NCBI GenBank assembly: GCA_903835185.1
Contig: CAILLX010000016.1
Coordinates: 62,001 to 126,000 of the forward strand
Direction of reading: 5' to 3'
DNA length: 64,000 nucleotides
Source: an uncultured bacterium
GTDB taxonomy: Bacteria > Cyanobacteriota > Vampirovibrionia > Obscuribacterales > Obscuribacteraceae
Both the position numbers and the translations under genes were made by a program. This document shows, piece after piece, positions 14,125-53,832 of the stretch. A model generated the notes under the pieces. The model was not told the DNA's origin. It ran no database searches and saw only the letters and a list, made by a program, of their open reading frames with translations. The stretch's first letter is position 1. Every line of letters begins with the position of its first letter.

Positions 14125-15762
14125 TTAACTTGGCTGCAACGCCGTGGGCAGGTGACTGTATAGTGCCTCAATATCAGAGGCCATTTGTCTGCGAAATTCC
14201 TGATATTCGTGAGCATTAACAGTCTGATATGGTTCGGTTTCGCTTTCACTGTCTATGTTAATGTTGTCTGTGCTGATGCGGCTTAGAAATGTGTCACGCC
14301 TGCTTATTGCATTAGCTGCAAGCCTCTTCACTTCCGGGGCTGTACATTTTTGTCCTGCCGAGATGAGATGTTCAAGAGTAGCCAAATATCTCAGGTCAGT
14401 TATACCTTCCCTCAACCCCTCCCATTGCAGCGTAGGAATTACTCCGCAGCGCGCCGGATACGTTGTCATTTGATCACGCAAGTTGCCGGCACGTCCTGTT
14501 GTATCCCAGGCATCGAAGTCATCAAATGGTGAAAACGGGAAAGCTGGTGGATGTTGATAGCAGTATGGAGCTATGCCGTCAGCCTGGGAGTTCCAGAGAT
14601 ATACACCAGAGAGCACTCGGGCAAGGTTAGGCTTCTCCATATGGCATTGCCAGTGGTAGTAAGTAAGTGGTGATTGCAAAGAGGAAGATCTTTCTCTGCG
14701 AGCGAAAAGATCTTTGTTGTTCTGGAGTGAAAACGAGATTATTGTCGGTTTATACCCGATGTCTGCAACATCTTCCATGCGTTTGACCAACTGATGATTA
14801 ATTACTGAGGACATTGATGTCCAGTTGAGAATCTGGCAATAGGCTCCGTGCCCTTGATGTTCGGCAATGAGTCTTGCACTAATCTGATTGCAGCCCGCAG
14901 CGTCCATCTCATCGCTTAAGTAAAATACTGGTGTGAGGCTCTTGAAATGCAGCGCCTCGGCATTGAAAGGGATGGAGCGCAATACTATATGACGAGTAAA
15001 GCCGACGTCCTCGGCGATGTCGATAGCAAGCTGCGCGGTGGCACGATCCTTCTCAGCTATCGATATGCTGCGAAAACCATGATCGTAAATGTCTTGCAGG
15101 TGTAAACGAAATAATTCTGGGGAAACATAGAATTGCCCTTGCTGCTGATCCATCGATCCCCTGTACCAGAGCAGGAGATCTTGAGCAGGTTCCAGTAGAG
15201 TAAACGGCAGGACATCCAGTTCTATTGATAGCTTATGCTCTTGACCTTGTTGGGTTGTAATGTTCAAGCAACCTGAATACAAGCCAGGCGGTGTCTCGCT
15301 CGCTATTTTGACTGATAACCAGATCTGTTTTGACTCGCCTGCGACAAGTGAGGTCACCACGCTATCTGTGAGCCGAACATCAGGTGGGCAGTACCGCCAC
15401 AGTGGGCTTTCACTTCCAATCCCCTGGTTGGCATTCTCAATGTAGCCATCTTCAAGGGGCATTCTGTCATCTTTGAGCAGCAGCTCTGAGACAGTCATGC
15501 GGTTGGATTGAAAGATGCCTACTCCTGAGACATCCCACACGCCAACAACATACATTGCAATCTGGCGCGGGTCTATCTGCCAAGAATCGCGCGCGAGAGA
15601 CGATACAGACAGTTCGATTTGTGCCAGGTCTTCTCTGCACTTGATACTAAAAGAGAACGCCACTGTTTCGCCAGGTGTTCCAAAGCCGCGCAGCTGGCTG
15701 GTTCGGTTTTCTTCTGGTCGAGCACAGTATGGACGGTGCTCGAGAAGTTTAAACGTGCTCAT
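14125..15762 (-). CDS. DUF4091-like, glycoside-hydrolase-like protein
   Basis: 545 aa; C-terminal WEGLREGITDLRYLATLEHL resembles the DUF4091 signature. Confidence 0.7.
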   Translation of the reverse strand: MSTFKLLEHRPYCARPEENRTSQLRGFGTPGETVAFSFSIKCREDLAQIELSVSSLARDSWQIDPRQIAMYVVGVWDVSGVGIFQSNRMTVSELLLKDDRMPLEDGYIENANQGIGSESPLWRYCPPDVRLTDSVVTSLVAGESKQIWLSVKIASETPPGLYSGCLNITTQQGQEHKLSIELDVLPFTLLEPAQDLLLWYRGSMDQQQGQFYVSPELFRLHLQDIYDHGFRSISIAEKDRATAQLAIDIAEDVGFTRHIVLRSIPFNAEALHFKSLTPVFYLSDEMDAAGCNQISARLIAEHQGHGAYCQILNWTSMSSVINHQLVKRMEDVADIGYKPTIISFSLQNNKDLFARRERSSSLQSPLTYYHWQCHMEKPNLARVLSGVYLWNSQADGIAPYCYQHPPAFPFSPFDDFDAWDTTGRAGNLRDQMTTYPARCGVIPTLQWEGLREGITDLRYLATLEHLISAGQKCTAPEVKRLAANAISRRDTFLSRISTDNINIDSESETEPYQTVNAHEYQEFRRQMASDIEALYSHLPTALQPS

Positions 15763-15934: not shown

Positions 15935-16825
15935 TTGCCGGGTTGGCGGCTCGCTACCGCTGGACTGAGGCTGGAGCTCAGGGCAGGGGGAAACGTGTCA
16001 GTAGGAGCAGAAGTGCAGCGAACGATTAGACCTGATGAACTGTCCGCTAGTCAACCGTTATACCGGCTGGGGAGGATATCTTTTGTTGTGAAAAGTGCAG
16101 ATGCTGGCTTTCAAAATGAGCTGGCGCGTCTGTTGCCTGCCTGCCGAGTTGCTCCAGAAGTCATATATGAAATCGAATCTGATGGTAATTTCCGCCAGCT
16201 TGTTGGAGAGATTTTAGGACTGCAGTCCGAGTATCTATGGCTGAGTGCGGCGTGCGTGGTTTCTCCTGCCGGACACAAGGTGCTTATTTCAGGCAATTCC
16301 AGTGCTGGAAAGAGCACTACTGTCTTAGCACTGGCGTTGCGTTATGGCTGGAAGGTGCTGGCTGAGGATCTTACCTGTATAGATCTGCACACCGGCAGGA
16401 TAATCTCATTTGCCACGCCGTTTTCGCTTAAGAAAGGCACGGTTGAACTGTTGCAGGAGACTATCTCAATGGTGCCAGAGCCGGTAGCTCTTGGCGAATG
16501 GGTTCCTCAGAGCGATTTGCATGCTCACGGCGAGTATGGGTCCAACTTGGATCTAAGTTTGTATTTTGGTACTGCTCGCCACGGTGAGCCTATGCAGGTG
16601 TCAGTTTGTTCTCCGGGGGAATATGTGCGCTTGCTATTGCCCTGCTCCAACTTGATTCATTGTGCTCATGGTCCTGATAAGTTAGCTGAATATGTGAGCT
16701 CCGGTACCTGCTATAGAGTTAGCGGTGGCAGCCTTTCTGAGCGCTTAAATCTGATTTTAGAGCTTACACACAGGAGTAGATCAATGGACACAAGCGAGAT
16801 TGGAGGCGCAGCCGATGTTGGATAA
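15935..16825 (+). CDS. HPr-kinase-like P-loop protein
   Basis: Walker A ISGNSSAGKSTT; AEDLTCIDLHTGRIISFATPFSLKKGT as in HprK-related proteins of RiPP loci; alternative GTG start at 15995. Confidence 0.8.
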   Translation: MPGWRLATAGLRLELRAGGNVSVGAEVQRTIRPDELSASQPLYRLGRISFVVKSADAGFQNELARLLPACRVAPEVIYEIESDGNFRQLVGEILGLQSEYLWLSAACVVSPAGHKVLISGNSSAGKSTTVLALALRYGWKVLAEDLTCIDLHTGRIISFATPFSLKKGTVELLQETISMVPEPVALGEWVPQSDLHAHGEYGSNLDLSLYFGTARHGEPMQVSVCSPGEYVRLLLPCSNLIHCAHGPDKLAEYVSSGTCYRVSGGSLSERLNLILELTHRSRSMDTSEIGGAADVG

Positions 16826-17123
16826 AAGATTGATTAGGCGTCAAGATGTACATGCCAAGATCCTGCCAGATGGATATGTTCTGCTCCAGGACAAAGAGAC
16901 GAACTGGGTTTATACGTTGACCCCGCTGGCAGGGATGGTGTGGGAGTTCTGTGATGGCAACAATCTGCTTGAAGATGTTGTCGGTCACATACGTGAAATT
17001 AAAGAAGTTGGTGGAGAACCTGGACTTGAGGAGAATCTCACTGAGCTGGTGGCAGATATGGAACAAGCTGGATTGCTTGTCGGTTGCGAGCGTACGATGG
17101 CTATCACGCAGGAAAAGGAGTAG
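16800..17123 (+). CDS. PqqD-like (RiPP recognition element) protein
   Basis: 107 aa; DGYVLLQDKETNWVYTLTPLAGMVWEFCDGNNLLEDVV...LVADMEQAGLLVG; overlaps the HprK-like gene by 26 bp. Confidence 0.85.
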   Translation: MEAQPMLDKRLIRRQDVHAKILPDGYVLLQDKETNWVYTLTPLAGMVWEFCDGNNLLEDVVGHIREIKEVGGEPGLEENLTELVADMEQAGLLVGCERTMAITQEKE

Positions 17124-17128
17124 CTTCC

Positions 17129-17170
17129 AAAGTCACCAATTGGTTACTTTTACAAAGTGACTAATTGGTT
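17129..17170. promoter_or_regulatory. Near-perfect palindrome plus repeated half-site after the PqqD gene
   Basis: AAAGTCACCAATTGGTTACTTT (17129-17150, one mismatched pair) then AAAGTGACTAATTGGTT (17154-17170), 25-bp spacing. Confidence 0.45.
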
Positions 17171-17207
17171 GAACGCCTTGTGCTTGACGTTCTCCTGAAG
17201 TCACCAT

Positions 17208-17347
17208 CTAGTAGTGAGATTCCAAAATAGTGCGACAGTGCTGGTCCATGCCCCGTAGGGGCGCGGTGCACGCGGGCGGATGCAATCCGCCCCTGCGGTA
17301 ATTGTTGCAGAACTTTGTGTTGCAGAACTTTGGAATCTCACTACTAG
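17208..17347. mobile_element. MITE-like element, 140 bp with 19-bp perfect terminal inverted repeats
   Basis: CTAGTAGTGAGATTCCAAA (17208-17226) / TTTGGAATCTCACTACTAG (17329-17347); internal GTAGGGGCGCGGTGCACGCGGGCGGATGCAATCCGCCCC. Confidence 0.8.
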
Positions 17348-17417
17348 TCAAGCGTTGCCCGTAGCATATGGAGTTGATAGACTGGTTCGTGCGTTTCGTG
17401 CCACTGGAGTGTATATA

Positions 17418-17609
17418 GTGCCACAAAGTTCACATCGCCATGATAATTCACAACCCAGCTGTGATCCGGCTATGAGTCGTGGCGAGTTTCTGCAGCTGTT
17501 GGTAAACAAGGCGCTATTGGCAGGGACTCTGGTGGCAGTACCTATGCTTGTCGATGCCTTCCCAGCTCCTGCTCAACAACAACTTTTGAGTGGAAAAACC
17601 CCTGGATAG
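17418..17609 (+). CDS. Candidate precursor peptide 1 (63 aa)
   Basis: GTG start aligned with paralogues; VPQSSHRHDNSQPSCDPAMSRGEFLQLLVNKALLAGTLVAVPMLVDAFPAPA-QQQLLSGKTPG. Confidence 0.8.
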   Translation: MPQSSHRHDNSQPSCDPAMSRGEFLQLLVNKALLAGTLVAVPMLVDAFPAPAQQQLLSGKTPG

Positions 17610-17739
17610 GTACCGCCTTTAATCGACAAGTAGCCAAGTAGTCTGCGAGGGTGGTTGGAGATAGAGGCTAGTCAAGCGTTGGCAATGGACTCTGTACTGT
17701 TAAGCTTGCCTGTGTATTTGATTAAACTGGAGCAAAGCT

Positions 17740-17931
17740 GTGTCTCAAAGTTCGCGTCAAGATGATAATTTGCAGCCCAGTTGTGATCCGGCTATGAGCC
17801 GTGGCGAGTTTCTCGGGTTGCTAGTCAATAAGGCGCTATTGGCAGGGACTCTGGTAGCTGTACCTATGCTTGTAGATGCCTTCCCAGCTCCGGCTGCTCC
17901 TCTGCTCAGCGGGCAGATACAGCCGCCATAA
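17740..17931 (+). CDS. Candidate precursor peptide 2 (63 aa)
   Basis: GTG start after ctggagcaaagct; leader near-identical to peptides 1 and 3; tail APLLSGQIQPP. Confidence 0.83.
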   Translation: MSQSSRQDDNLQPSCDPAMSRGEFLGLLVNKALLAGTLVAVPMLVDAFPAPAAPLLSGQIQPP

Positions 17932-17981
17932 ACAACCCGACTTGAACTATTCTGTGTGTTTGATTAAACTGGAGCAAAGCC

Positions 17982-18173
17982 GTGTCTCAAAGTTCGCACC
18001 AAGATGATAATTTGCAACCCAGTTGTGATCAGGCTATGAGCCGTGGCGAGTTTCTCGGGTTGCTAGTCAATAAGGCAATATTGGCAGGGACTCTGGTAGC
18101 TATACCTATGCTTGTCGATGCCTTCCCCGCTCCGGCTCAAGTACCGCCTTTAAGCGGGCACACGCCAGATTAA
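17982..18173 (+). CDS. Candidate precursor peptide 3 (63 aa)
   Basis: GTG start with the same upstream gattaaactggagcaaagc block; tail QVPPLSGHTPD. Confidence 0.83.
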   Translation: MSQSSHQDDNLQPSCDQAMSRGEFLGLLVNKAILAGTLVAIPMLVDAFPAPAQVPPLSGHTPD

Positions 18174-53696: not shown

Positions 53697-53832
53697 GCAC
53701 TTGACGCACTGCTTCTATATTGCTAGTAGGGGCGGATTGTATCCGCCCGCTGGCGTTTGCAACGTGCCCCTACGAGGAATTGTCCAAGCGCTATGGCACT
53801 ATTTTGGAATCTCGCTACTAGTCAAGAGAGTC
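53697..53832. mobile_element. MITE-like palindromic repeat, copy 3 (inverted)
   Basis: Core GTAGGGGCGGATTGTATCCGCCCGCTGGCGTTTGCAACGTGCCCCTAC (53726-53773), then GGCACTATTTTGGAATCTCGCTACTAGTCAAG matching the left arm of copy 1 in reverse complement. Confidence 0.72.

What the first reader, a model, noticed from the sequence alone, without database searches (positions are those of the whole stretch)
15935..18173. Candidate undescribed RiPP/secreted-peptide system: HprK-like kinase + PqqD-like RRE + three tandem 63-aa precursors
Seen: an HprK-like P-loop gene overlaps a PqqD-like gene, followed on the same strand by three 63-codon ORFs with near-identical N-terminal ~52 residues and divergent tails. 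Established: PqqD-like domains are RiPP precursor recognition elements, and HprK-like kinases occur in RiPP loci such as the lasso peptide paeninodin, where one phosphorylates a precursor Ser. No lasso B/C enzymes, radical SAM or YcaO gene is seen beside it, so the pairing does not match a classical class I can name. Inference: the pair recognises and modifies these peptides, possibly with a maturase encoded elsewhere.
Basis: partly seen in the sequence, partly recalled or inferred. Interest (0 to 1): 0.9.

Follow-up and report, generated by a model that had tools for sequence, protein, structure and literature searches.

The report
Linear phosphopeptide-like peptide gene cluster
In an uncultured relative of cyanobacteria, three small peptide genes sit beside a peptide-recognition protein and a kinase-like enzyme; the same set recurs across related genomes, so it is very probably a real peptide-modifying system, close to one described in 2026 from other bacteria but with a different export-type leader and an altered kinase.

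Summary
In detail: an HprK-like gene overlaps a PqqD-like gene, followed by three 63-codon ORFs under purifying selection (leader pN/pS 0.15-0.25). Over 382 genomes of the class, peptide, PqqD and HprK profiles hit the same 15 genomes, all in one family (named relatives: mostly Candidatus Obscuribacterales). PqqD models as a lasso-type recognition element, HprK as the PEPCK/HprK fold. The usual third partner, an NTP_transf_5 nucleotidyltransferase, lies about 52 kb away. The triad without lasso enzymes resembles the Linear Polyphosphorylated Peptides (LPP) of Bacillota (Nat Commun 2026). It differs: the leader resembles a Rieske/Tat signal-anchor, the kinase's catalytic His is Ser104 (Asp/Glu in most relatives), and no LPP peptidase or exporter lies beside it. 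Ten of the 15 genomes, not this one, add an ATP-grasp maturase, a microviridin-like second precursor and an unknown ~430-aa protein. Most likely: PqqD recruits the leader, the kinase modifies the tail's single Ser, NTP_transf_5 elaborates it, the leader exports it. Linkage is well supported; chemistry is inferred.

The parts
15995..16825 (+). HprK-like P-loop protein (ORF open from TTG 15935; likely start GTG 15995)
   Evidence: TIGR04352 E 5e-9, well below its cut-off; AF2 pLDDT 88, PEPCK/HprK fold incl. HprK/P 1kkl; K126 and E144-D145 kept, catalytic-His position is S104 (numbering from the TTG start)
16815..17123 (+). PqqD-like RiPP recognition element, start overlaps the end of HprK
   Evidence: PF05402 E 6e-8; AF2 pLDDT 87, top folds lasso RRE TbiB1 5v1v and TruD; best PDB profile hit 9x8z_B = LppB
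17418..17609 (+). precursor peptide 1 (63 aa, GTG start), tail QQQLLSGKTPG
17740..17931 (+). precursor peptide 2 (63 aa, GTG start), tail APLLSGQIQPP; S57 is the only hydroxyl residue of the tail
17982..18173 (+). precursor peptide 3 (63 aa, GTG start), tail QVPPLSGHTPD
14125..15762 (-). divergent GH123-like protein (545 aa); ortholog also flanks the cluster in G019 (L035 3745-5424); membership in the system uncertain

Best explanation
A linear RiPP-like system. (1) The 52-residue leader of each 63-aa peptide is bound by the PqqD-like RRE (inferred; the fold is predicted). (2) The RRE presents the tail to the HprK-like protein, which puts one or more phosphates, or a related phosphoryl-type group, on the conserved tail Ser (LSG; S57/58) (inferred from LppK and PadeK). 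(3) The NTP_transf_5 protein encoded about 52 kb away elaborates that group with a sugar or nucleotidyl unit (inferred from PsmN; the ortholog with its DID motif is shown). (4) The Rieske/Tat-like hydrophobic leader carries the peptide to the membrane, where it is cleaved near AxA (FPAPA) or stays as an anchor (inferred). The product is a short modified cell-surface or secreted peptide. Other lineages add an ATP-grasp maturase with its own precursor; this lineage probably lost them.
For: Peptide, PqqD and HprK profiles hit the same 15 of 382 genomes, patchily within one family, and the genes are adjacent. In the closest relative G019 the order is NTP_transf_5-HprK-PqqD with the peptide nearby; the window genome's only NTP_transf_5 is similar from its first residues on. 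LPP clusters have the same RRE + HprK + NTP-transferase core, 1-3 precursors with conserved N- and variable C-termini, polysaccharide-locus context and Ser phosphorylation by LppK. PsmK/PsmN phosphorylate then glycosylate a Ser (PMC9266682). RRE fold, HprK/PEPCK fold, purifying selection, one Ser conserved in all three tails. HprK tree nests window+G019 within kinases of ATP-grasp-type clusters.
Against: The kinase lacks the catalytic His of the HKDD motif (S104; Asp or Glu in 19 of 27 family members, His in 13 of 13 outgroup proteins) and has ED for DD. The leader lacks the [Y/W]xxP motif of LPP/lasso leaders; only FxxP-like forms are present (22 of 29). Some relatives have tails with Thr but no Ser. 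No LppS-type peptidase or MsbA-type exporter was seen in the annotated neighbourhoods. NTP_transf_5 is unlinked here. No binding or activity was tested.
Confidence: 0.5

Rival explanations
1. Same system, different chemistry: the HprK-like protein is not a Ser kinase. With its catalytic His lost it does another phosphoryl/nucleotidyl transfer or serves as an ATP-binding partner, and the real modification is made by NTP_transf_5 or another enzyme.
For: His position is D/E/S/L/Q in 25 of 27 family members against His in 13 of 13 outgroup HprK-like proteins; acidic pair ED instead of DD; arrays of four diverged HprK copies in L037 and L040.
Against: P-loop Lys is invariant and the second Asp nearly so, and the fold is kept, so nucleotide-dependent phosphotransfer remains plausible; Asp/Glu might substitute for His.
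Confidence: 0.25
2. The small ORFs are mainly Tat/Sec-targeted membrane micro-proteins; the leader is a Rieske-type signal-anchor, and PqqD/HprK control or decorate an envelope peptide rather than make a classical leader-core RiPP.
For: The peptide profile hits cyanobacterial PetC N-termini outside the family at E 2e-4 to 9e-4; 8 of 22 members match Cytb6fFeSPetC and 2 match TAT_signal_seq weakly; glycosyltransferases and sugar transferases sit in many related loci.
Against: The second Arg of the twin-Arg is not kept (K18, G4, A3 and others); RRE proteins have an established role in leader binding; hypervariable tails and tandem copies look like precursors.
Confidence: 0.15
3. Vestigial locus: the window copy is the decaying remnant of the full ATP-grasp/two-peptide system and makes no product.
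For: ATP-grasp, its precursor and the ~430-aa protein are absent from the genome; the window kinase nests among kinases of full clusters; a TIR element sits between PqqD and the peptides.
Against: All ORFs are intact, the three peptide copies are under purifying selection, and G019 keeps the same reduced set without the ATP-grasp genes.
Confidence: 0.07

Closest known systems
Linear Polyphosphorylated Peptides (LPP), Bacillota; Popov et al. 2026, PMC13381572
   Same: Discrete RRE, HprK-like kinase, NTP transferase, no macrolactam cyclase seen, 1-3 precursors with conserved N-terminus and variable C-terminus, polysaccharide-gene surroundings (in relatives). LppB (9x8z) is the best PDB profile match of this PqqD family.
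   Different: Leader is Rieske/Tat-like, not YxxPxVLxHQxIxFETxxS; kinase catalytic His replaced; no SpI-like LppS or MsbA-like LppD seen; different phylum (LPP stated as restricted to Bacillota); relatives carry ATP-grasp and a second precursor.
Paeninodin/pseudomycoidin-type lasso peptides (PadeK/PsmK + PsmN)
   Same: RRE + HprK-like kinase + nucleotidyltransferase acting on a Ser-containing precursor.
   Different: No lasso leader peptidase B2 homolog over cut-off in the family genomes; no lasso leader motif; kinase lacks HKDD.
Graspetides/microviridins (MvdC/D, TIGR04187)
   Same: Relatives (not the window genome) carry an ATP-grasp maturase (E 1e-65 to 1e-71, below curated cut-offs) beside a small ORF with PFFLRAWWLR, like the microviridin leader motif PFFARFL.
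   Different: Absent from the window genome; in relatives linked to RRE/HprK/NTP and a second peptide.
HPr-rel-A (TIGR04352) and SynChlorMet ScmC/ScmD cassettes
   Same: Best NCBIfam matches for kinase (TIGR04352, 5e-9) and PqqD (ScmD, 3e-4).
   Different: Scores far below the equivalog cut-offs (35.6 of 200; 20.9 of 100 bits).

Membership tests
LPP (linear polyphosphorylated peptides) | discrete RRE gene | tested here: met
   PF05402 over cut-off and predicted RRE fold
LPP (linear polyphosphorylated peptides) | HprK-like kinase gene in the cluster | tested here: met
   HprK/PEPCK fold and weak TIGR04352 match
Lasso/LPP-type kinase with the HKDD catalytic motif | catalytic His of HKDD | tested here: not met
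   His position is S104; 13 of 13 outgroup proteins have His
LPP (linear polyphosphorylated peptides) | NTP transferase in the cluster | tested here: inconclusive
   In the cluster in relatives; in this genome an ortholog about 52 kb away on the same contig
LPP (linear polyphosphorylated peptides) | leader motif YxxPxVLxHQxIxFETxxS | tested here: not met
   Leader is SCxxx[ST]R[KG]xF...; only FxxP seen
LPP (linear polyphosphorylated peptides) | SpI-like peptidase LppS and MsbA-like exporter LppD in the cluster | tested here: not met
   Neighbours annotated: RND pump, response regulator, GH123-like, histidine kinases; none among the related-locus neighbours that were annotated, though not every neighbour was
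LPP (linear polyphosphorylated peptides) | phosphorylated Ser in the core | not testable with these tools
   Needs mass spectrometry; a single Ser is conserved in the three tails
Lasso peptide | leader peptidase B2 (PF13471) in the genome | tested here: not met
   No hit in the window genome; weak below-cut-off hits in two relatives lie in 2000-3300-aa open frames
Lasso peptide | Asn-synthase-like macrolactam cyclase | not tested
   Not searched as a family; none among the annotated neighbours
Graspetide | ATP-grasp maturase with cognate precursor | tested here: not met
   Neither in the window genome; both in 10 of the 15 genomes
Twin-arginine (Tat) substrate | S/T-R-R-x-F-L-K motif | tested here: not met
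   First Arg and Phe kept, second Arg replaced in 29 of 30; one relative (L104) has DRREF

The most novel reading that the evidence does not exclude
A distinct RiPP class of Candidatus Obscuribacterales in which a Rieske/Tat-type membrane leader doubles as the RRE recognition sequence, a His-less HprK-like enzyme makes a new phosphoryl-type tail modification, and in fuller clusters a second, microviridin-like peptide matured by ATP-grasp forms a two-peptide product.
Probability: 0.3. Interest if true: 0.82.

Novelty: new variant of a known kind. Interest (0 to 1): 0.62.

Why it matters
It extends RRE + HprK + nucleotidyltransferase systems for linear peptides, so far described in Bacillota, to a non-photosynthetic cyanobacterial lineage. 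It supplies a kinase subfamily without the catalytic His, a leader that looks like a membrane-targeting anchor, and sister clusters that couple the set to an ATP-grasp maturase with a second precursor. The question of what HprK-like proteins do to peptides, and why they sit near polysaccharide genes, becomes testable in a minimal four-gene set.

Tried and rejected
Lasso peptide: no B2 over cut-off in the family genomes. Maturase hidden in the window: neighbours are an RND pump, glycyl-tRNA synthetase, two-component genes, UvrB and a sigma factor; no CX3CX2C motif in window ORFs of 200 aa or more. ATP-grasp elsewhere in the genome: none. Curated family membership: HprK and PqqD fall far below equivalog cut-offs; the window peptides match nothing. 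Rfam, promoter and terminator scans of the locus: nothing beyond chance. PDB profile search with the kinase gave only P-loop noise, so fold comparison was used. The ~430-aa c4 protein has no Pfam, NCBIfam or PDB relative of note; my by-eye guess of an alkaline-phosphatase-type fold is untested.

Full report
WHAT IS THERE. On the + strand an HprK-like gene (open from TTG 15935, more likely started at GTG 15995) overlaps a PqqD-like gene (16815-17123). A 140-bp element with terminal inverted repeats (17208-17347) follows, then three 63-codon ORFs at 17418-17609, 17740-17931 and 17982-18173. The three ORFs share a 52-residue leader. DNA differences fall mostly at third positions and pN/pS is 0.15-0.25, so these are genes. 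The tails are QQQLLSGKTPG, APLLSGQIQPP and QVPPLSGHTPD, with a common LSG. They are the only copies in the genome, and this is its only PqqD match.

LINKAGE. A kinase search over 194 genomes of the class found homologs only in the same family. In the 20 wide neighbourhoods fetched, nearly every locus with a kinase also has a PqqD and a small peptide of the same family. The peptide signature is SCxxx[LMI][ST]R[KG][EDQ]F, a hydrophobic stretch, DKF..PP..A, then a variable tail. Profiles of peptide, kinase and PqqD were run over the same 382 genomes. They hit 15, 18 and 16 genomes; all 15 peptide genomes have all three, and many genomes of the same family have none. Named relatives are mostly Candidatus Obscuribacterales/Melainabacteria.

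THIRD PARTNER. The nearest relative, G019, has NTP_transf_5 (PF14907), HprK and PqqD in a row (L035 5523-7950). The window genome's own copy sits at contig position 24302-25630, about 52 kb from HprK. PqqD + HprK + NTP_transf_5 also recur in Acidobacteriota, Actinomycetota, Okeania and others; the two actinobacterial genomes tested have clear lasso leader-peptidase hits (E 2e-19 and 8e-15), while the family genomes have none over cut-off.

FULLER CLUSTERS. Ten of the 15 genomes encode a small ORF with PFFLRAWWLR...SDPxCD, reminiscent of the microviridin leader, beside an ATP-grasp peptide maturase (TIGR04187, E 1e-65 to 1e-71, below cut-off) and a ~430-aa protein without database relatives. 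In G083 and G129 the ATP-grasp gene runs off a contig end. The window genome has none of the three (assembly 85% complete). In the kinase tree window + G019 nest inside kinases mostly from such full clusters (support 1.0 for a 13-tip clade), so a reduced set by loss is likely.

FOLDS AND RESIDUES. PqqD: AlphaFold pLDDT 87, nearest folds lasso RREs (TbiB1 5v1v; B1 6jx3) and TruD; best PDB sequence-profile match is LppB, chain 9x8z_B. HprK: pLDDT 88, PEPCK superfamily with HprK/P 1kkl among the matches. Walker Lys126 is invariant. The His of the HKDD motif, required in lasso kinases (PMC9266682), aligns with Ser104 here and is D/E/S/L/Q in 25 of 27 family members, against His in 13 of 13 outgroup proteins; the acidic pair is ED instead of DD. 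Two family members (L048, L053) keep the His. That the outgroup His is the HKDD His is my reading of the alignment.

LEADER. The peptide profile also hits the N-terminus of cyanobacterial Rieske protein PetC (E 2e-4 to 9e-4), known as a Tat-type signal-anchor (own knowledge), and NCBIfam PetC models match 8 of 22 members weakly. The second Arg is nearly always replaced. The leader may therefore be a membrane-targeting sequence that also serves as RRE ligand. An FxxP-like motif, similar to the [Y/W]xxP ligand of lasso/LPP RREs, precedes the tail in 22 of 29; whether it is the ligand is untested.

COMPARISON. LPPs (PMC13381572) share the RRE, kinase, NTP transferase and precursor layout, and LppK phosphorylates core Ser3. 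This system works like an LPP in outline, but fails several membership features: leader motif, LppS/LppD, and the kinase His. It is best called a new variant of that kind, not an LPP.

MECHANISM AND CONFIDENCE. Shown: genes, selection, co-occurrence, predicted folds. Inferred: RRE-leader binding, tail Ser modification, NTP_transf_5 elaboration, export through the leader. I put about 0.85 on a functional HprK-PqqD-peptide system and about 0.5 on the full phosphorylation-type mechanism.

Noticed in passing
window 17208-17347: 140-bp element with 30-nt terminal inverted repeats (CTAGTAGTGAGATTCCAAA...), MITE-like, between PqqD and the first peptide; one more TIR-like site at 53803-53820.
   Followed up: partly
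L035:10906-13501 (G019): Precursor with (PAPTPEPP)-type proline repeats next to a second PqqD and a 2OG-Fe(II) oxygenase + Cupin_8/JmjC protein, with glycosyltransferase-like genes around: candidate hydroxyproline-type peptide modification.
   Followed up: partly
L037, L038, L039, L040, L041, L043, L046, L047, L052: ATP-grasp peptide maturase beside a small ORF with PFFLRAWWLR...SDPxCD: a graspetide-like precursor family; the one graspetide survey checked (PMC8939145) does not mention Melainabacteria.
   Followed up: partly
L037:6650-12698 and L040:7129-13110: Arrays of four diverged HprK-like genes in one cluster.
   Followed up: no
L038:8305-9624 and orthologs (alignment A4): ~430-aa conserved protein (invariant FD..H and SYSH-type motifs) with no Pfam/NCBIfam/PDB relative of note, usually next to the peptide in full clusters.
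   Followed up: partly
L104:2144-2332 (G146): A peptide of this family with a twin-Arg DRREF motif.
   Followed up: no
L149, L154 (Okeania): HprK-like, one or two PqqD and NTP_transf_5 together in marine filamentous cyanobacteria; no PF13471 hit in the L149 genome.
   Followed up: no
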